Notes under the pieces: model-generated
What the model saw: only the letters and a program-made list of their open reading frames with translations
The model's database searches: none
Told to the model about the DNA's origin: nothing
Made by a program: the position numbers and the translations under genes
Origin: Sulfuritalea sp.
GTDB taxonomy: Bacteria > Pseudomonadota > Gammaproteobacteria > Burkholderiales > Rhodocyclaceae
DNA length: 64,000 bases
NCBI GenBank assembly: GCA_022842325.1
Contig: JALHPU010000006.1
Location: forward strand, 1 to 64,000
Reading direction: 5' to 3'
Shown: positions 54,422 through 62,478 of the stretch, in pieces
How the letters are laid out: each line of letters starts with the position of its first letter
How positions within the stretch are numbered: the first letter of the stretch is position 1

Positions 54422-54997
54422 ATGCAAGCCAGAACACTGCAACTCAGTATGATCGCCACGGCGCTGCTGGCCCTGAGCGCCGTCACGGCGCCGGCACGTG
54501 CCGACGATGCCCGCCGCGAGTGGCGCCAGGACAGCCGCGAAATCCGCCAGGACCGCCGCGAACTGCGCGGCGACTATCGCGAACTGGCCGAGGATCGCGC
54601 CGACTATCAGCGCGCCAGGGCACGCGGCGATGTCGTCGGCATGTTCCGCGAGCGCATGGAAATGCGCCAGGATCGGCAGGAGATCCGCCGCGACCAGGCC
54701 GAACTGCGTCATGACCTGCGCGACCGCCGCCAGGATGCACGCGGACATCAGGACCAGCGCAGTCACTGGGGCCAGCAGCGCTACGACCGGCATGACGGTC
54801 GCCATGACCTGCGCGCCGTGCGTCATGACTTCCGCCAGGACCGTGGGCCGGGGCATCCGGCTCAGGCGGCCAACTCGCAAGGCCCTCGCCAGCAGCACGC
54901 GAACCCCGCCACCGCCTCACCACCGGCCAATGCGCAGCAGAACAACGGCCGCCACCTGGGATGGCAGCAAGGTCGCGGTAACCCGCACCGCAGCTAG
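54422..54997 (+). CDS. Exported Arg/Asp-rich helical protein
   Basis: A 191-residue protein with a signal peptide (MIATALLALSAVTAPARA). The mature part is dominated by short heptad-like repeats rich in R, D, Q and E (REWRQDSREIRQDRRELRGD, RQDRQEIRRDQAELRHDLRD), then an Asn/Gln/Pro/Gly tail. Extended charged helices are likely. AGGAG lies 7 bases before the ATG. I do not recognise a family. It is the only plus-strand gene beside the minus-strand envelope-protein cluster and may share its role. Confidence 0.8.
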   Translation: MQARTLQLSMIATALLALSAVTAPARADDARREWRQDSREIRQDRRELRGDYRELAEDRADYQRARARGDVVGMFRERMEMRQDRQEIRRDQAELRHDLRDRRQDARGHQDQRSHWGQQRYDRHDGRHDLRAVRHDFRQDRGPGHPAQAANSQGPRQQHANPATASPPANAQQNNGRHLGWQQGRGNPHRS

Positions 54998-55174: not shown

Positions 55175-55723
55175 TCAGCGCACGGAAGCGCCCGGCGGTG
55201 GCGGCGGCGGATTGCCCGGGGGCGGCGGCGGATAGGCGCCGCTCGCCGGCGCCGCAGGTACACGCTGAACCGGCCCTTCCAGCTGGCTGCGCTGGCCTGC
55301 GGTGACCGGCACCCGTTGCCCCTTGGCGTACATGCACTGGACATAGGCATTGTCGTAGCTGCGCTGGGAGCCGTAGGCCGAAACCTGGGCCGTTTCGGTG
55401 CCGACCATGCTGCCTACCAGCAGACCGGTTCCGGCGCCGACCCCGGCACCGCCGCGCCCGCCGATGGCGGCACCGGCAACGGCGCCCACCGCAGTACCGA
55501 CGACGGCGCTGCGTACGCCGGCATCGACCGCCGCCTGATTCGCACCGCCGCCCACCTGATGCAGCGCATAGCGGCGGCATTCGGCATCGTCACTGCGAAA
55601 CTGGTCGAAGTTCTTCCCGGTCCCGGGCAGGGCCATCACGCTCGGGCCGGTCGGCAGCGACGCACAGCCGGCAAGCAGCACCAGGGCCGACGCGGCGGCG
55701 AGAGACGACATTGGAATTTTCAT
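55175..55723 (-). CDS. Glycine-zipper lipoprotein with proline-rich tail
   Basis: A 182-residue protein. The lipoprotein signal has lipobox LAGC. A Cys-containing region (DDAECRRYALHQVGGG) is followed by a long glycine zipper (VVGTAVGAVAGAAIGGRGGA and GVGAGTGLLVGSMVG). A second conserved part (RSYDNAYVQCMYAKGQRVPV) precedes a polyproline tail. Such glycine-zipper envelope proteins are widespread in proteobacteria, with unclear roles in outer-membrane integrity or stress. It starts 21 bases after the preceding gene on the same strand. Confidence 0.85.
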   Translation of the reverse strand: MKIPMSSLAAASALVLLAGCASLPTGPSVMALPGTGKNFDQFRSDDAECRRYALHQVGGGANQAAVDAGVRSAVVGTAVGAVAGAAIGGRGGAGVGAGTGLLVGSMVGTETAQVSAYGSQRSYDNAYVQCMYAKGQRVPVTAGQRSQLEGPVQRVPAAPASGAYPPPPPGNPPPPPPGASVR

Positions 55724-55744
55724 GGCGGCGATTCCCGGTTCGTT

Positions 55745-56116
55745 TCAAGGCTGACCCGGAGGCTGCGGCAATACCCTTTGCCATCCGCCGGGGCACTCCT
55801 TGACGTAGGGGTAGTAGCCCGCTGCCGCGGCGCAGTAGTACCAATAATTGCCTGGCGTGACGATCCCGGACGCAGCCGGTGGCGGGGCAAGCAGCGCCGG
55901 CTGTTGTTCGATGTACACCAGCGGGGCGGAACGCTCGACCACGATCGGCGGATAGTAGGGAGGGTAGTAGCGCGGACCCCAGTACGGGCCCCAGTACGGA
56001 CCGATGATCACACTGAAATGCCCATGGCTGCGATGGCCGCCACGGCGCCCGTCGGCATTGCTGACGCCGGTCGCGCCCAGCAACAGAAGCACGATGAGGA
56101 GTTTTGTTGCGTTCAT
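55745..56116 (-). CDS. Small exported Tyr/Pro-rich protein
   Basis: A 123-residue protein with a signal peptide (LLIVLLLLGATGVSNA). A Tyr/Pro/Trp-rich segment (GPYWGPYWGPRYYPPYYPP) precedes a C-terminal motif YYPYVKECPGGWQRVLPQPP, a pattern common in small envelope proteins of unknown function. The start at 56116 is fixed by AAGGAG 8 bases upstream. Confidence 0.82.
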   Translation of the reverse strand: MNATKLLIVLLLLGATGVSNADGRRGGHRSHGHFSVIIGPYWGPYWGPRYYPPYYPPIVVERSAPLVYIEQQPALLAPPPAASGIVTPGNYWYYCAAAAGYYPYVKECPGGWQRVLPQPPGQP

Positions 56117-56419
56117 GGCAGATCTCCTTTCCTGGAGACGACAGCGACGGGATATCCGGCCGCCTGCACTGCTTCGACTCCAAGGCCATTGAACGCCTTG
56201 CATGTAATCGATTTACTCCAAACGCAAGGTGATTTGTAAGCAATCGTTACGCGGCTTCGTTCCCGAACGGACTCATCGTCCCCGCGCTTCCAGCAGCGCG
56301 CATAGCCAGGCAGCGAACCCAGTCTCTCGAGTTCGCCGGCGGCGAGGGACAAACCTACCGAGAGAATCGCTGCGCGCTTGTTGCCAATCAATCCGCTGCG
56401 CAGGACTGGCGTCGTTCCG
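56117..56419. other. 303-base gap without a recognised gene
   Basis: Apart from the Shine-Dalgarno of the gene at 56116, nothing convincing is seen here: no tRNA, no clear sigma-54 element and no codon-like frame with a start. It could hold an internal promoter for the last two genes of the cluster or a decayed gene. Confidence 0.4.
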
Positions 56420-56725
56420 TCATCGCATGCGGCATGGCGCTGCTGCACATCGGGCTTCGACCAGGGTGGCGAAATCATGCTGCCAATTGCCGAGGCCCAT
56501 ACCGCCGCGCCCTCCGGTGGCCGGTGGTCTGGCGTCGATTTCATGCACCTCGACCGCGTCGCCATTCAAGGGCGCATCGCACGCCCCGTTGGCAAGCGCC
56601 CGCTCCCCCGCCGGCAGGACAAACACCCGAAACCTTGCGCCGCAGGCCGGGTTTCCGGAGACCAGGAAAAGCCGGCCGTACTGGCCGGTCTCGGACAGCT
56701 TCGCAAATTCCTCGGCGCCTCTCAT
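56420..56725 (-). CDS. Hypothetical 101-residue protein
   Basis: A small frame with a perfect AAAGGAGGG Shine-Dalgarno 2-3 bases before the ATG, the same type of site as its neighbours. It has no signal peptide. The sequence (FAKLSETGQYGRLFLVSGNP, FRVFVLPAGERALANGACD) suggests a compact beta-rich domain that I do not recognise. It lies 42 bases after the 275-residue protein gene on the same strand. Confidence 0.6.
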   Translation of the reverse strand: MRGAEEFAKLSETGQYGRLFLVSGNPACGARFRVFVLPAGERALANGACDAPLNGDAVEVHEIDARPPATGGRGGMGLGNWQHDFATLVEARCAAAPCRMR

Positions 56726-56767
56726 GACCCTCCTTTCGCGTGATCGTTCAGGTGTGCCGCTCCGCCG

Positions 56768-57595
56768 TCAGCGGCCGCGACCCTGACCGCCGTTACCGTT
56801 GTTAGCGTGGCCGCTGCCGCCGAAATTGCCCGCGGCGCGCAAGCCCAACCCCGACGTTGCAGAAACGCTCGCACTCGCCGGCAACACATGGTCGCTGCCG
56901 GAGCGCATCGACTTCGTCTCCGTACCGTCGCCCCGCACCTGGACACGACTGCCGCCATGCGAGCTTGCTGGGCGCAGAATCTCGCCGCTGGCCGTGGTCA
57001 CGGCGCCGGCACGATGGCCACGTGCCGTGACTGCCCCCGATGTGGTGCCAGATGCGGTGCCGGACGCCTTGATCGACGCCGCATTTCCCAGCGGCACCCC
57101 GGTTGTTTTTGATATCTGCCCCCATCCCATGCCCTGGCTGCGCAAGCTCAGGGTGCCGGACAGCGTCGCCGTGTCGCCCGTGGCGGTGGTGATGCTGCCG
57201 CCGGTCAGCGCGGCCTGCAGTTCGGCCGGCGTCGGATCGGTGATGCCCTGTGCCGCCAGATCCCGCTGCGCGAGCGTCAGCGCATGCCGTACGTTGCCCC
57301 AACCCATCGGGCGCGTCGGCGGCATGAAACCGATGCCGGCATCGGCACCGGCACTGCCGCCCGTCGTAGCCGGAGCAAGAGTGACGAGGCTGCCCGAGCG
57401 CAGGCCGTTGACCAGGCTGGCCGCATTTTCTTCGGAACCGGCGAACTTGCTGAAACTGGAGACCAGCTTCTGGCGCGCCGGAACCGAGGTTTGCGCGGAC
57501 GTCGAGGTCAGCGCCGCCGTGTCGGCGGCGGCCGCGCCGGCCAGCAGATAAGCGCTGCTCACGGCAAGAAAGCCGATGACGATGGTTCGCTTCAT
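56768..57595 (-). CDS. Exported Gly/Ser/Thr/Ala-rich protein of unknown function
   Basis: A 275-residue protein with a signal peptide (IGFLAVSSAYLLAGAAAA). The mature part contains a helix resembling a phasin-like or bacteriocin-like stretch (KLVSSFSKFAGSEENAASLV), two MGWG motifs (PMGWGNVRHALTLAQRDLA, GMGWGQISKTTGVPLGNAA) and a low-complexity C-terminus ending GGQGRGR. The MGWGxxxxALxL pattern recurs in exported proteins of proteobacteria without known function. The start is fixed by AAGGAGG upstream of 57595. Confidence 0.8.
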   Translation of the reverse strand: MKRTIVIGFLAVSSAYLLAGAAAADTAALTSTSAQTSVPARQKLVSSFSKFAGSEENAASLVNGLRSGSLVTLAPATTGGSAGADAGIGFMPPTRPMGWGNVRHALTLAQRDLAAQGITDPTPAELQAALTGGSITTATGDTATLSGTLSLRSQGMGWGQISKTTGVPLGNAASIKASGTASGTTSGAVTARGHRAGAVTTASGEILRPASSHGGSRVQVRGDGTETKSMRSGSDHVLPASASVSATSGLGLRAAGNFGGSGHANNGNGGQGRGR

Positions 57596-57608
57596 GACTT
57601 CCTCCTTT

Positions 57609-58037
57609 TCACGAATTGCCGAGCACGCGCTCGGTCTGTGCAATGATTTCCAGGGCGGTGGCGCTGTCATTCAGCAGGCCATCCTTGGCCACGGCGCGCA
57701 TGCGCGTGGTGTTGGAACTCAGCGCTTCGAGTTCGACCTCGATGTCACGGTTTTCCGCCCGGGCCTGAATGACTTCCACGCCCCTGGTCTTTTTGGCCGA
57801 GGCGACCTTGATGTTCATCCGCTGCAGGGCCGCCAGCGTTGCTGCCTTGATCCTTACTTCCGGTGCCGTGAAGGTCCGGTAGGCATAGCCGTTCAGCGTA
57901 TGCGAGACGCCGGCCGCCGAGCCGACGCCGAAAGCCGTCAGCGCCAGGGATTCACAGCCGGCGGCGGCCACGCTCGCCAGCAGCGCCACGGCCGCAAGGC
58001 TCGGCGACAAGGAACGACGGGGATGGGTGTTGGTCAT
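57609..58037 (-). CDS. DUF3568-like lipoprotein
   Basis: A 142-residue lipoprotein (lipobox AAGC near residue 28). After ALTAFGVGSAAGVSHTLNGY comes a conserved alpha/beta domain (YRTFTAPEVRIKAATLAALQ, IEVELEALSSNTTRMRAVAK). It resembles the DUF3568 family of small beta/gamma-proteobacterial lipoproteins. AGGAG lies 8 bases before the ATG. It starts 16 bases after the glycine-zipper gene upstream and is very likely co-transcribed. Confidence 0.82.
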   Translation of the reverse strand: MTNTHPRRSLSPSLAAVALLASVAAAGCESLALTAFGVGSAAGVSHTLNGYAYRTFTAPEVRIKAATLAALQRMNIKVASAKKTRGVEVIQARAENRDIEVELEALSSNTTRMRAVAKDGLLNDSATALEIIAQTERVLGNS

Positions 58038-58053
58038 GGAATTGCTCCTGTTC

Positions 58054-58647
58054 TCAACTGCGCGCCACGACGGCGCCGTTCACCACGCGAACCTTGTCGC
58101 CGACCGCGACACCAGGGTTGCTGGCCATGTGGGCGGTAGCGACACCGCCCTTATCCAGACGTACTCGCACCTCGTAAGTCGTCCTGCGTTTGACGTTTTT
58201 CTCGATCTCATTGCCGGCGTAGGCGCCGCCGACGCCACCCAGCACGGTCATCGCGGTACGGCCGTCGCCGCGCCCGAACTGATTGCCCACCAGCATGCCG
58301 GTCACGCCGCCGGCCACCGCGCCCAGCCCGGAGCCGCTGCCGCGCTGCTCGACGACGCGAATCGACTCGACCACGCCGCAATCGGCGCAGACTGCCGCCA
58401 GTTTGGAGGACGCGGATTGCGTCTGGCCCGGCGTCTGAGCCTGCGCCTTGCGCTGCGACTGGGCCTGGGCCTGGCGCTGGGCGCCGGCGACGGGCTGTGA
58501 GGCGATCTGCTTTTCAGCGGGTTTCTCAGCAGAGCTCGCGCTGGGGAGGTAGCCCATCATCATGGCGATGCCAAGCGCACTGAACAGCGTGACGGCGATT
58601 GCCGCGATCACCATCAGCGGATACAGAAGCTTGTTGCGGGATTCCAT
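58054..58647 (-). CDS. Membrane-anchored glycine-zipper 2TM protein
   Basis: A 197-residue protein. One N-terminal membrane helix (LMVIAAIAVTLFSALGIAMM) is followed by a Gln/Ala/Lys-rich linker. A glycine zipper (GLGAVAGGVTGMLVGNQFG and VLGGVGGAYAGNEIEKNVKR) and a small C-terminal beta domain (YEVRVRLDKGGVATAHMASN) follow, as in SlyB-like outer-membrane stress proteins. Two Cys in AAVCADCGVVESI precede the zipper. It is the second gene downstream of the sigma-54 promoter. Confidence 0.88.
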   Translation of the reverse strand: MESRNKLLYPLMVIAAIAVTLFSALGIAMMMGYLPSASSAEKPAEKQIASQPVAGAQRQAQAQSQRKAQAQTPGQTQSASSKLAAVCADCGVVESIRVVEQRGSGSGLGAVAGGVTGMLVGNQFGRGDGRTAMTVLGGVGGAYAGNEIEKNVKRRTTYEVRVRLDKGGVATAHMASNPGVAVGDKVRVVNGAVVARS

Positions 58648-58709
58648 GGCGCCTCTGCGTTCCTGCGAAGCCGCCTGCGGACGCCCGGTCAGCAATGCGG
58701 GCCGGGCGT

Positions 58710-58928
58710 TCACTTGCGCTCCATTTCCTTGCCGATGCGGTTGCCGATGACACCGCCGACCGCGGCTCCGCCCACGGTGCCGACGGTGCTGCCGCCGGTC
58801 AGCGAGGAACCGACGATGCCGCCGACCACCGCGCCGCCGACGGTGCCGATTTCCTGCCGCGTCGGATTGGAATTGCAACCCGCCACGGTCAACGCTGCCA
58901 CCAGCAGAATCATCAGTTTGGTTTTCAT
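58710..58928 (-). CDS. Small glycine-zipper lipoprotein
   Basis: A 72-residue osmotically-inducible-lipoprotein-like (OsmB-type) protein. It has lipobox VAGC near residue 17, then a full glycine zipper (GTVGGAVVGGIVGSSLTGG, VGTVGGAAVGGVIGNRIG) and a basic end. AAGGAG lies 7 bases before the ATG at 58928. It is the first gene after the sigma-54 promoter at 58980-58995. Confidence 0.9.
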   Translation of the reverse strand: MKTKLMILLVAALTVAGCNSNPTRQEIGTVGGAVVGGIVGSSLTGGSTVGTVGGAAVGGVIGNRIGKEMERK

Positions 58929-58979
58929 GCCTTGCTCCTTGTCGATGCACGCGCAACGCTGCGCGCTCACCTCTCTCTA

Positions 58980-58995
58980 CGCAGCGACCGTGCCA
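58980..58995 (-). promoter_or_regulatory. Sigma-54 (RpoN) promoter
   Basis: Minus strand reads CTGGCACGGTCGCTGCG from 58996. The -24 part CTGGCACGG matches the sigma-54 consensus fully, and the -12 part is CTGC in place of TTGC at exact spacing. The predicted start of transcription is near 58969, about 40 bases before the glycine-zipper lipoprotein gene. Confidence 0.8.
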
Positions 58996-59061: not shown

Positions 59062-59079
59062 CGTCGCCGATCGGCGACA
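59062..59079. promoter_or_regulatory. GlrR/QseF-type activator site 1
   Basis: CGTC-N10-GACA with palindromic interior (CGTCGCCGATCGGCGACA), one base from the TGTC-N10-GACA site known for enterobacterial GlrR. It is centred about 100 bases upstream of the predicted sigma-54 start. Confidence 0.68.
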
Positions 59080-59126
59080 GCTTTGCTGTGCCATCAGGCA
59101 AGCCTTTGATTTATAGACTCAAGGGC

Positions 59127-59144
59127 TGTCGCCGGAATGCGACA
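59127..59144. promoter_or_regulatory. GlrR/QseF-type activator site 2
   Basis: TGTCGCCGGAATGCGACA is an exact TGTC-N10-GACA match, 65 bases (about six helical turns) from site 1 and centred about 165 bases upstream of the predicted start. It lies just after the glrR stop codon. Confidence 0.72.
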
Positions 59145-59153
59145 GGAAGGCCG

Positions 59154-60506
59154 CTACTTGAACAGGGCCGGATCGAGCTGGTGGCGTTCGAGCAGGCGGT
59201 AGAACTCGGTGCGGTTGCGCTTGGCCAGGCGCGCGGCCTGGCTCACGTTGCCCGCGGCCAGGCGCAGGATCCGGCTCAGGTAGTCGTGCTCGAAGCGCCG
59301 CCGCGCTTCCTCGAAGGAAACCGTTGTATCCACCGCGCTGATCGCGGTGGTGATCAGCCCAAGCGGAATGATCGGGGCGGTGGCCAGCGCCACGGCCTGT
59401 TCCACCACGTTGTACAACTGCCGCACGTTGCCGGGCCAGGCGGCGCCGACCAGGGCCTCCATCGCCTCGGGCGCAAAACCAGTGAGCTTCTTGCCGTAGC
59501 GTTCGGCCAGCCGGCGCAGGAAAGCGCCGGCCAGCAACGGGATGTCGTCACGCCGCGCGCCGAGCGCGGGAAGCGCCAGGGCGACGACGTTGAGCCGATA
59601 GAACAGATCCTCGCGGAAACGGCCCGCGGCCATCTCGTCCTCCAGTCGGCGATGCGTGGCGGAAATGATGCGCACATCCACCGGCAGCGAGCGGGCGGAA
59701 CCGACCGGCCGCACCTGTCTTTCTTCCAGCACCCGCAGCAGCTTGACCTGCAGCACCGTCGGCATGTCGCCGATTTCGTCGAGCAGCAGCGTGCCGCCCG
59801 CAGCCTCCTGGAACAGCCCGCGATGGTCGCGCACGGCGCCGGTAAACGCGCCCTTGACGTGGCCGAAGAGTTCCGATTCGAGCAGCGCCTCCGGAATGGC
59901 GCCGCAATTCACCGCGAGGAAGGGCCCTTGGCGGCGCCGGCTGGCGCGGTGGATCGCCATCGACAACAACTCCTTGCCGCTGCCCGACTCGCCGCGGATC
60001 AGCACGCTGGCATCGCCCGCCGCGACCAGCCTGGCCTGGGCCAGCAGGTCCTCCATGGCCGGGTTGCGGGTGATCAGGCCGGCCCGCCACTCATCGTCCG
60101 CGCCGCCCGCGGCGGATGCCCCGCTCAGGGCCAGGCCGCGCTCGATCTGCGCCAGCAGGTCCCTGGCTTCGTAAGGCTTGGTCAGGTAGCCGAAAATGCC
60201 GCGCCGCATCGCCGCCACCGCGTCGGGAATGGTGCCGTGGGCGGTCAGGATGATTACCGGCAGCGTCGGATGGGCGCGATGAATCGCATCGAACAGCGCG
60301 ACGCCGTCCATGCCCGCCATGCGCATGTCGGACAGCACCAGTTGCGGGCGTTCGGCGGCGATCGCGGCCAGCGCCTGCTCACCACTTTCGACCGCCGTCA
60401 CGCCGTAGCCGGCCGCCGTCAGCCGGATCGAAAGCAGGCGCAGCAAATCGTGGTCGTCGTCGACCAGCAGCAGCCTGGCCTTGGGGGACTCCGGGCGGGC
60501 GCTCAT
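59154..60506 (-). CDS. glrR: Sigma-54-dependent response regulator GlrR (QseF)
   Basis: A 450-residue NtrC-type activator. The receiver has phospho-acceptor Asp60 (LVLSDMRMAGMDG) and YLTKPYEA. The AAA+ domain has Walker A GESGSGKE, the sigma-54 contact loop GAFTGA and Walker B GGTLLLDEIGDM. A Fis-type helix-turn-helix closes the protein (NVSQAARLAKRNRTEFYRLL). Assignment as GlrR/QseF rests on the partner genes qseE and qseG upstream. Its ATG overlaps the qseG stop. Two candidate binding sites and a sigma-54 promoter follow directly downstream. Confidence 0.93.
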   Translation of the reverse strand: MSARPESPKARLLLVDDDHDLLRLLSIRLTAAGYGVTAVESGEQALAAIAAERPQLVLSDMRMAGMDGVALFDAIHRAHPTLPVIILTAHGTIPDAVAAMRRGIFGYLTKPYEARDLLAQIERGLALSGASAAGGADDEWRAGLITRNPAMEDLLAQARLVAAGDASVLIRGESGSGKELLSMAIHRASRRRQGPFLAVNCGAIPEALLESELFGHVKGAFTGAVRDHRGLFQEAAGGTLLLDEIGDMPTVLQVKLLRVLEERQVRPVGSARSLPVDVRIISATHRRLEDEMAAGRFREDLFYRLNVVALALPALGARRDDIPLLAGAFLRRLAERYGKKLTGFAPEAMEALVGAAWPGNVRQLYNVVEQAVALATAPIIPLGLITTAISAVDTTVSFEEARRRFEHDYLSRILRLAAGNVSQAARLAKRNRTEFYRLLERHQLDPALFK

Positions 60507-61048
60507 CGCGGCTTCTCCGGCGAACTGCGCTGGATCATGCGCTGCTCGATGGACTTCAGCGCCTCCAGCTTCTGGTCGAGGTCGGCGGCGCGGCGCTGTT
60601 CGTCGTTCGCGCGCCGCTGCTCGTCGCGCGAGCGGCGCTCGGCATCGAGCAGCTCGCCGGCCGCGGCATGCAGATGCGCCGCCAGCCGCCGCAACTCGAT
60701 GTCGTGGCTGTCGTCTTTGAGCAAGGGCTCCAGCAACTGGCGGGCGCGCGGCAGATCGCGGCCCGGACCGGCGGCAGTCGACAGCAGCAGGACGTACTGG
60801 AGGCGCACGAAATCGCTGCGATCCCTGGCGGCAAAGGCCAGGCGCTGGCGCTCATGCTCCCGCGCCGACTCGGCGGCGGACAGGCCGCGGACGTATTCGG
60901 CATAGGCCAGCAGCGATTCGACGTGGCTGGCCGGCCGCGCCGCACCGGCCTTGATCCAGTAAGTAGCATCGGCCTGGCCGGGCGGCCACGGAAAAGTGCT
61001 GCAGGCGGTCAGCAGCGCGGCACAGCAGATGGCAAGGCAGCGCTTCAT
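60503..61048 (-). CDS. qseG: QseG-like outer-membrane lipoprotein
   Basis: A 181-residue lipoprotein with lipobox LTAC at residue 16 and a mostly helical mature part (ESLLAYAEYVRGLSAAESAR; LDQKLEALKSIEQRM). In enterobacteria QseG is an outer-membrane lipoprotein that activates the kinase QseE. Sequence identity to QseG cannot be judged by eye; position between kinase and regulator genes, with ATGA overlaps on both sides, is the main basis. Confidence 0.82.
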   Translation of the reverse strand: MKRCLAICCAALLTACSTFPWPPGQADATYWIKAGAARPASHVESLLAYAEYVRGLSAAESAREHERQRLAFAARDRSDFVRLQYVLLLSTAAGPGRDLPRARQLLEPLLKDDSHDIELRRLAAHLHAAAGELLDAERRSRDEQRRANDEQRRAADLDQKLEALKSIEQRMIQRSSPEKPR

Positions 61049-62478
61049 GCCGACGCGGCCAGCGGCTGACCGAGCGGCAGGACCACGCGGAAGCGCGCAC
61101 CGGCGCCCGGCAGCAACTCAATGCGCCCGCCATGGGCGAGCACGTGCTCCCTGACGATAGACAAGCCGAGACCGGAGCCTTTCACCGCCGACTCGCCCCG
61201 TGCCCCGCCCTGATAAAAGGGGTCGAATATCCGTTCCCGGTCTTCGGGTGCCACACCGGGCCCCTCGTCTGCCACTTCCAGCAATGCATTTCCGTCCTCC
61301 GTCTTCCAGCTCAGTGCAATGGTAGCGCCCGGCGGCGAAAACTTGATGGCATTCGACAGCAGGTTGTCCAACACCACCCGCAACCGCTCGCCGTCAGCCA
61401 CCAGTGAAAAATCATCGACGTCGACCTGCAGCGCCAGCTTGCGGGAGGCCAATGCCAGATCGTGTTTTGCCACGACATGGGCTGCAAAATCGCGCGGATC
61501 GATGGTCTGCAACTTGAGCGAGGCCTGCTGGAACTCGGCGGCACTATAACTGAGGAGATCCTCGATCAAACGCCGCAGGTGCAGGCTGTTCTCGCGCAGG
61601 ATACGGACAATTTCCTCCTGCTGCGCCGTCAGCGGCCCCGCCGCCTGCTCGGCGAGCAGGTCGGAACCTTCGCGCAAGGCGGTCAACGGCGTCTTCAGCT
61701 CGTGCGAGACATGGCGCAGAAATCGGCTCTTCTGTTCCTCCAGCTGCATCAGGCGCAGGCGCAGCCAGTCGAGCTGGCTGCCCAGCTGCTCCAGATCCTC
61801 GGGGCCGTTGACGGCGATCTTGCGCTCGAAGCGGCCCTCGCCGAGACCGCGGATGCCGCGGTCCAGTTCGGCGATCGGCCGCGACAGCAGGTGGCTGAAT
61901 CCCAGCACCAGGAACACGGCAACCGGCAGCAGCGCCAGCAACTGGCCATAGACGACGCGCTCGGCATCGCTGGCAAGCGCGCGCAGCGACTCGACTTCGC
62001 GTTCGATGCCCTCGCTGCTGTGCCTGAGCAAGACACCGGCCACCTCGGCCATCCGGTCGAAACCCGCCACGGCATCGGCCTGGCGTCCGGCGCCGACCGC
62101 CGTGAATATCTCCTGCTCGGCACTCAGCAGCCGCTCCAGTTCGCGCCGCTGGTCGTCGGTCAGGGGCAGCGCCGCCAGGCGCTGGCCGCTGTCGACGAAG
62201 GCGCGGTGCAGCCGATCGTAACTTTCCCGCATCGCCGGATCCTTGATGACAAGGTACTGGCGTGCCGCGCGCTCGAGCAAGGACAGGTTTTCCTGCAGGG
62301 CGCGGCTGGCCTGGGTAACCTGCACCGCCTGATACACGACCTGCTGGCTCTGGGCCGCCAGGCGCCGGATCGATACCGCGTTGCCGATCAGGCCTATCAG
62401 CAGGGGCAGCGCGACCAGCGCAAAGCCGATCGAGAGCAGCTTGACGAAGGATCGCGGATAGCGGAACTTGAACTGCAT
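61045..62478 (-). CDS. qseE: Sensor histidine kinase QseE (GlrK)
   Basis: A 477-residue kinase with two membrane helices (LLSIGFALVALPLLIGLIGN; LLALLPVAVFLVLGFSHLL) around a helical periplasmic domain of ~150 residues. A HAMP domain follows, then the HisKA box with His in FLRHVSHELKTPLTALREG and the ATPase boxes LLSNAIKFS, ADEGPGVAPEDRE and GSGLGLSIVREH. It would phosphorylate GlrR. The three-gene order kinase-lipoprotein-regulator matches enterobacterial qseE-qseG-qseF. A TAGAAT-like -10 element lies at 62508-62513 on this strand. Confidence 0.92.
   Translation of the reverse strand: MQFKFRYPRSFVKLLSIGFALVALPLLIGLIGNAVSIRRLAAQSQQVVYQAVQVTQASRALQENLSLLERAARQYLVIKDPAMRESYDRLHRAFVDSGQRLAALPLTDDQRRELERLLSAEQEIFTAVGAGRQADAVAGFDRMAEVAGVLLRHSSEGIEREVESLRALASDAERVVYGQLLALLPVAVFLVLGFSHLLSRPIAELDRGIRGLGEGRFERKIAVNGPEDLEQLGSQLDWLRLRLMQLEEQKSRFLRHVSHELKTPLTALREGSDLLAEQAAGPLTAQQEEIVRILRENSLHLRRLIEDLLSYSAAEFQQASLKLQTIDPRDFAAHVVAKHDLALASRKLALQVDVDDFSLVADGERLRVVLDNLLSNAIKFSPPGATIALSWKTEDGNALLEVADEGPGVAPEDRERIFDPFYQGGARGESAVKGSGLGLSIVREHVLAHGGRIELLPGAGARFRVVLPLGQPLAASA

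What the first reader, a model, noticed from the sequence alone, without database searches (positions are those of the whole stretch)
55175..58928. Seven-gene minus-strand cluster of small exported proteins, several with glycine zippers
Gaps are 62, 16, 13, 42, 303 and 21 bases. Products include an OsmB-like zipper lipoprotein, a membrane-anchored 2TM zipper protein, a DUF3568-like lipoprotein, two exported proteins of unknown family, a cytosolic unknown and a second zipper lipoprotein. Most starts have AAGGAG-type sites. The combination looks like an uncharacterised envelope-stress or surface-maintenance operon.
Basis: partly seen in the sequence, partly recalled or inferred. Interest (0 to 1): 0.7.

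Follow-up and report, generated by a model that had tools for sequence, protein, structure and literature searches.

The report
GlrR-controlled envelope protein operon
Four of the seven small envelope genes look like one operon switched on by the envelope-stress regulator GlrR encoded right next to them, including a relative of the membrane-guarding protein SlyB, while the other three genes do not seem to belong to it.

Summary
The seven ORFs and six gaps are as described, but they are not one conserved unit. g1-g4 (58928-56768) lie directly downstream of a GlrK / YfhG-like / GlrR operon (62478-59154). The 225-bp gap holds two GlrR-type enhancers 65 bp apart, an IHF-type site between them and a sigma54 promoter: the layout of E. 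coli glmY. Of 40 named loci with a g2 relative, 16 have glrR upstream and all 16 have enhancer plus promoter; of the 24 where no glrR was seen, none has both. The enhancer pair occurs at exactly three places in the 4.9-Mb genome: here, before a 118-aa exported protein and before a bactofilin, each with a -24/-12 match 65-67 bp on. g2 is homologous to SlyB (HMM E 3e-11; Foldseek E 1.6e-8) but has an N-terminal membrane helix instead of a lipid anchor. g5 was found only in this genome (1 of 61); g6-g7 are a separate conserved pair. Best reading: a GlrR/sigma54-activated envelope-protection operon. The regulation is well supported by comparison, the function is inferred from homology, and nothing was tested by experiment.

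The parts
61045..62478 (-). GlrK/QseE-like sensor histidine kinase
   Evidence: HisKA and HATPase_c; 33% identical to E. coli GlrK over 413 columns, E 8e-65
60503..61048 (-). YfhG/QseG-position small putative lipoprotein (lipobox by eye)
   Evidence: position between kinase and regulator; relatives in 18 of 61 genomes; no blastp match to E. coli QseG
59154..60506 (-). GlrR/QseF-like sigma54 response regulator
   Evidence: receiver, Sigma54_activat, weak HTH_8; best NCBIfam GlrR 603 bits, cut-off 763; 56% identical to E. coli GlrR
59127..59144 (-). UAS1, TGTCN10GACA, no mismatch
59099..59111 (-). IHF-type site AATCAAAGGCTTG, no mismatch to WATCARN4TTR
59062..59079 (-). UAS2, TGTCN10GACA, one mismatch, 65 bp from UAS1
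58980..58995 (-). sigma54 -24/-12 promoter TGGCACGGTCGCTGCG (two mismatches to TGGCACN5TTGCW, GG-N10-GC kept); transcription start inferred near 58968
58710..58928 (-). g1, OsmB-like glycine-zipper lipoprotein
   Evidence: conserved behind glrR
58054..58647 (-). g2, SlyB-like zipper protein with N-terminal membrane helix and CxxCG
57609..58037 (-). g3, DUF3568 putative lipoprotein
   Evidence: conserved behind g2
56768..57595 (-). g4, exported protein of no known family; residues about 37-170 predicted folded
56420..56725 (-). g5, orphan ORF with good ribosome site; membership in the operon uncertain
   Evidence: 1 of 61 genomes
56231..56249 (-). conserved block upstream of g6 (TAACGATTGCTTACAAATC), unlike the GlrR/sigma54 sites
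55745..56116 (-). g6, exported protein; separate pair with g7
55175..55723 (-). g7, glycine-zipper putative lipoprotein; separate pair with g6

Best explanation
g1-g4 are an operon activated by the adjacent GlrK/GlrR two-component system through sigma54. An envelope signal makes GlrK phosphorylate GlrR (inferred from E. coli). GlrR binds UAS1 and UAS2, IHF bends the DNA between them, and sigma54 polymerase starts at the promoter 58995-58980 (supported by conserved sequence and spacing, not shown by experiment). The products, an OsmB-like lipoprotein, a SlyB-like zipper protein held by its own membrane helix, a DUF3568 lipoprotein and g4, act in the envelope. g2 probably oligomerises through its zipper and stabilises stressed membrane or membrane proteins, as SlyB does (inferred; about 0.45 on its own). 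The same kind of GlrR site also precedes a 118-aa exported protein and a bactofilin elsewhere in the genome. g5 is uncertain; g6-g7 are a neighbouring unit. The confidence given is for GlrR/sigma54 control of g1-g4.
For: glrK-yfhG-glrR directly upstream. Two UAS, IHF-type site and sigma54 promoter in the gap, the layout of E. coli glmY in the same scan; consensus from PMC8745638 and PMC6075780 (passages). Both elements in 14 of 17 fetched glrR loci and in 16 of 16 named g2 loci with glrR, against 0 of 24 where no glrR was seen; UAS2 to -24 distance 79-83 bp in 14 of 16. In an alignment of 9 gaps the columns of the UAS half-sites and of the -24/-12 elements are among the few invariant ones. UAS plus promoter: 15 places in 11 of 61 genomes, reversed control 0. 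UAS pairs: 19 against 3 reversed in the seven genus members with yfhG, 1 against 5 in the other 24; all three in the own genome have a promoter match at 65-67 bp. SlyB homology of g2.
Against: No expression or binding data. Each motif alone is not rare: sigma54-like matches in the window 35 against 37 expected, UAS-like 26 against 19, reached by 5 of 100 shuffles. L059, L060 and L066 have glrR but failed the gap scan (L060's genome G046 does show a UAS pair there). IHF-type site absent in 6 of 16 spacers. Over all 61 genomes UAS pairs are 31 against 23 for the reversed control. The regulator is below the GlrR equivalog cut-off and the lipoprotein does not match QseG. g2 lacks a lipobox, and some relatives lack the zipper. 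Eight of the 16 named loci repeat contigs, and many loci are close relatives.
Confidence: 0.8

Rival explanations
1. All seven genes are one envelope-stress operon.
For: Same strand, short gaps except one of 303 bp, no clear terminator between g5 and g6.
Against: g5 only in this genome; g6-g7 a separate pair on other contigs in six genomes with a conserved upstream block of their own.
Confidence: 0.07
2. The promoter is real but served by another sigma54 activator than GlrR.
For: Sigma54 activators are a large family (established knowledge); only sequence evidence names GlrR.
Against: The UAS equal the E. coli GlrR consensus; UAS pairs track yfhG in the genus, 7 of 7 against 1 of 24 genomes.
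Confidence: 0.06
3. The products act mainly back on the sensor: g1-g4 tune GlrK signalling (feedback, or redox sensing by CxxCG of g2) rather than protecting the membrane.
For: g2 is the most constant gene behind glrR, has a conserved membrane helix and invariant CxxCG, and relatives without zipper keep both.
Against: SlyB homology over the zipper and sheet; other targets are a bactofilin and exported proteins.
Confidence: 0.2
4. Chance neighbourhood: zipper genes are common, and the sites are not functional.
For: g2-type matches at E<=0.001 occur in 57 of 61 genomes.
Against: Conserved order, spacing and motifs and repeated sites at unlinked genes.
Confidence: 0.03

Closest known systems
GlrK/QseG/GlrR (QseE/QseG/QseF) control of glmY and rpoE in E. 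coli
   Same: Gene order kinase - small protein - regulator; UAS consensus; UAS pair 63-65 bp apart with IHF-type site between; sigma54 promoter.
   Different: The target beside the system is a protein operon downstream of glrR instead of an sRNA upstream of glrK; the lipoprotein does not match QseG; no GlmY family hit in the window.
SlyB, outer-membrane lipoprotein of E. coli (PDB 7ojf)
   Same: Homologous zipper and sheet domain; SlyB is made under PhoPQ and also under sigmaE control and forms rings that may encapsulate outer-membrane proteins (PMC13067283, passage).
   Different: g2 has an N-terminal membrane helix and no lipobox, an invariant CxxCG, and a predicted sigma54/GlrR promoter.
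OsmB
   Same: g1 is a small glycine-zipper lipoprotein (42 bits to the OsmB model).
   Different: Below the curated cut-off of 98 bits; different predicted control.
Sigma54 as controller of the bacterial exterior (PMC3162934)
   Same: A comparative study already ties sigma54, with a QseF-like class, to surface and lipoprotein functions (passages).
   Different: The passages seen name no such operon and none of these genes.

Membership tests
GlrR/QseF response regulators | receiver, sigma54-activator and HTH domains | tested here: met
   HTH_8 17.4 bits is below its cut-off of 22, but the C-terminal helix aligns almost identically with E. coli GlrR
GlrR/QseF response regulators | curated score of the NCBIfam GlrR equivalog | tested here: not met
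   603.3 of 763 bits, best of 117 families; so GlrR-like rather than a filed member
GlrR/QseF response regulators | TGTCN10GACA binding | not testable with these tools
   sites present and conserved; binding not assayed
QseG lipoproteins | sequence homology to QseG | tested here: not met
   no blastp match at E<=10
SlyB | zipper and sheet homology | tested here: met
   E 3e-11; Foldseek E 1.6e-8, TM-score on target 0.52
SlyB | lipoprotein signal with lipidated cysteine | tested here: not met
   no lipobox by eye; predicted helix 8-31; hence SlyB-like only
SlyB | ring formation around outer-membrane proteins | not testable with these tools
   needs biochemistry
OsmB | curated OsmB score | tested here: not met
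   42.4 of 98 bits
DUF3568 | PF12092 gathering score | tested here: met
   32.6 over 23.2 bits

The most novel reading that the evidence does not exclude
In Betaproteobacteria GlrK/GlrR is a direct sigma54 envelope-protection regulon: it drives a SlyB-type membrane guard, accompanying lipoproteins and a bactofilin, and in some lineages the same promoter slot behind glrR drives a short RNA, as glmY does in enterobacteria. The output slot of GlrR would then switch between protein and RNA in evolution.
Probability: 0.55. Interest if true: 0.78.

Novelty: new variant of a known kind. Interest (0 to 1): 0.62.

Why it matters
GlrK/GlrR is known from enterobacteria, where it drives the sRNA gene glmY and rpoE. 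Here its predicted output in Betaproteobacteria is direct: a SlyB relative, lipoproteins, an exported protein and a bactofilin. That would give several uncharacterised small envelope proteins a regulator, tie a guard-type protein to a sigma54 stress circuit, and make the older role of GlrR testable. The listings of my paper searches (open-licence PMC full text only) showed me no paper linking GlrR to such genes; subscription papers were not searched.

Tried and rejected
Papers on the sRNAs S17 and NcS25 (passages only) looked promising for sigma54 and Rhodocyclaceae, but in the passages seen neither concerns GlrR. The Acidithiobacillia sigma-factor paper (passages) lists GlrR/GlrK without these targets. 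Rfam on the window found two tRNAs only. A first own-genome pattern with too short a gap found nothing. The looser order-wide pattern (139 of 300 genomes) is noisy and its reversed control also hits, so I used it only to choose places by eye: 20 stretches, of which 10 contained glrR. It counted three places in the own genome, of which the listing showed two; I did not see the third. g4 gave a weak model (mean pLDDT 57) and no significant fold match. The original paper on the GlrR consensus (PMC3045617) is not held, so the consensus comes from two later papers. Zipper similarity alone was rejected as evidence of orthology: 57 of 61 genomes match g2 at E 0.001, 10 (own included) below 1e-40. Two of the 19 UAS pairs of the seven genus members with yfhG (G001:C52, G012:C154) have no clear target.
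Full report
Observation. The seven ORFs are on the minus strand with exactly the stated gaps. Zippers in g1, g2 and g7 and DUF3568 in g3 are supported; g4, g5 and g6 match no Pfam or NCBIfam model at E<=1. Five of seven starts have AGGAG-type sites.

What lies upstream. Directly upstream on the same strand are a histidine kinase, a small putative lipoprotein and a sigma54 response regulator whose best NCBIfam model is GlrR (603 bits, cut-off 763). Against E. coli K-12 the regulator is 56% identical with a near-identical C-terminal helix-turn-helix and the kinase 33%; the lipoprotein has no match to QseG. The order is that of qseE-qseG-qseF (E. coli annotation).

The regulatory gap. Between glrR and g1 (225 bp) lie two TGTCN10GACA-type enhancers, one perfect and one with one mismatch, 65 bp apart, a perfect IHF-type site between them, and a sigma54 promoter that keeps GG-N10-GC with two mismatches to TGGCACN5TTGCW. 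The published QseF consensus is TGTCN10GACA (PMC8745638, passage) or TGTN12ACA with IHF helping (PMC6075780, passage). The same scan on E. coli glmY gives three perfect UAS, two of them 63 bp apart with an IHF-type site between, and the sigma54 promoter. Counts of single motifs in the window are at or little above chance (35 against 37 for the promoter; 26 against 19 for the UAS), so the weight lies on arrangement and conservation. An IHF-type site with at most one mismatch is in 10 of 16 UAS spacers, 1.05 expected from shuffles; many of these loci are close relatives.

Conservation of the link. Of 61 genomes (own plus 60 relatives), 10 have a g2 match below 1e-40 and 18 a YfhG-like match. In 8 of the 10, own included, that match follows glrR. 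In G047 the copy behind glrR scores only 6e-36 and two better copies lie elsewhere; G039's match lies near a contig end without glrR. All of g1, g2, g3 and g4 are present behind glrR in six other genomes of the genus (L050, L051, L052, L054, L055, L056). Of 17 fetched glrR loci, 14 have a UAS (at most 1 mismatch) and a promoter (at most 2) behind glrR; L059, L060 and L066 do not, although a UAS pair is found in the L060 gap. A scan of named genomes with a g2 alignment gave 40 loci: 16 have glrR upstream and all 16 have both elements; of the 24 others none has both, five have a lone UAS-like match. The stretch scanned was the glrR-g2 gap (284-1184 bp) in the first group and up to 500 bp in the second, and some of the 24 lie near contig ends (L123 has 374 bases upstream), so glrR may be missed there. 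UAS2 to the -24 element is 79-83 bp in 14 of the 16, 94 in L127 and 127 in L095.

Regulon. UAS plus promoter within a fixed distance: 15 places in 11 of 61 genomes, reversed control none. The UAS-pair pattern, which asks for no promoter, finds 31 places in 17 of 61 genomes against 23 for the reversed control, so on the whole it is near noise; in the seven genus members with a yfhG match it finds 19 against 3, in the other 24 genus members 1 against 5. The window's genome (121 contigs, completeness 99.94, contamination 5.15) has three pairs: before g1, before a 118-aa exported protein and before a bactofilin (PF04519 2.2e-17). A -24/-12 match follows at 67, 67 and 65 bp. A bactofilin gene follows the same site in G001, G010, G012 and G016 (a sixth, G027:C41, was not fetched), and a bactofilin-like ORF follows g2 or g4 in L099, L101, L102 and L106 (by eye). 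The 118-aa family has its own site in G001, G008, G016 and G027 and lies behind g4 in G012 (L056). In 10 order-level stretches with glrR, chosen by eye, the next gene is a g2 relative without a zipper in four (L168, L175, L176 by tblastn, L180 by eye) and a BON or EF-hand/BON exported protein in six (L164, L165, L171, L174, L177, L178; Pfam run on L165 and L174 only).

g2. A profile of 13 g2 sequences has one PDB hit, SlyB, E 3e-11. The model has mean pLDDT 64.8 (helix 8-31, disordered linker 33-83, strand, helical hairpin, sheet), with one Foldseek hit below 0.001, SlyB (E 1.6e-8, probability 1.00, TM-score 0.39 on the query and 0.52 on the target). SlyB forms ring-shaped complexes that may encapsulate outer-membrane proteins where LPS is absent, and is under PhoPQ and sigmaE control (PMC13067283, one passage). 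g2 differs by its membrane helix and an invariant CxxCG, and two relatives in the alignment (L060, L062) lack the zipper. Whether the helix is a lasting anchor or is cleaved is open: the close orthologues share a P-x-A-x-S motif that could be a cleavage site. I call it SlyB-like, not SlyB. In E. coli GlrR acts on rpoE and sigmaE on slyB; here the link would be direct (inference).

g5-g7. g5 is found only in its own genome among 61. g6 and g7 occur in 23 and 24 of 61 genomes and are neighbours in 12 of 12 loci examined, own included. They are on other contigs than the glrR operon in six genomes. The window and four loci share a block upstream of g6 that is unlike the GlrR sites, weakest in L209; seven further loci were left out of that alignment by my script because of their orientation. 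No clear terminator separates g5 from g6, so read-through is possible.

Side result. In the family of the order relative G057, 12 of 28 genomes match a short stretch behind glrR; glrR is in all 12 loci, and UAS plus promoter were scored in 11 of 11 further loci and in the query locus. The stretch ends in a terminator whose stem shows paired changes. No Rfam family reached its gathering score; a lax scan of seven of the 12 loci gave three weak matches, one of which (AniS, 25.3 of 50 bits, E 1.5) overlaps the candidate in L251. This is a candidate GlrR-driven sRNA in the slot where others have g2.

Verdict. GlrR/sigma54 control of g1-g4 is strongly supported by comparison; membrane protection is a homology-based inference; nothing was tested by experiment.

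Noticed in passing
L065 and L246-L257 (family of G057): Candidate sRNA with a terminator directly behind glrR, under UAS and sigma54 promoter, in 12 of 28 genomes of the family; no Rfam family at gathering score, a weak AniS match overlaps it in L251.
   Followed up: partly
L061, about 190-340 bases past the end of glrR (oriented): UAS and sigma54 promoter followed by another terminator-like hairpin of different sequence: a second candidate RNA.
   Followed up: no
L163 (G000:C6:129794-129891): Second predicted GlrR target of the window's genome: a 118-aa exported protein of no Pfam family, with orthologues under the same sites in four genus mates.
   Followed up: partly
L234 (G000:C19:26730-26810): Third predicted GlrR target of the window's genome: a bactofilin.
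   Followed up: partly
L089 (G047:C3:81504-81599): UAS plus sigma54 promoter before genes that look by eye like a glycosyltransferase, a sugar epimerase and a UTP-glucose uridylyltransferase.
   Followed up: no
window 54422-54997 (+): Exported protein rich in R, D and Q, convergent with g7; a relative lies beside g6-g7 in G016 too (L206).
   Followed up: no
window 56231-56249: Conserved block upstream of g6 that might be a box for an OmpR/CpxR-type regulator (motif likeness recalled, not tested).
   Followed up: no
L093, L094, L096, L097, L098 behind g4: A different small ORF beginning MFQM, about 94-110 aa, takes the place of g5 in five loci; no Pfam match for the one tested (L096).
   Followed up: no
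L090 (G007), L091 (G011): UAS plus sigma54 matches in two genus members without a yfhG match; in L091 a cytochrome c-like gene follows; perhaps another activator.
   Followed up: no
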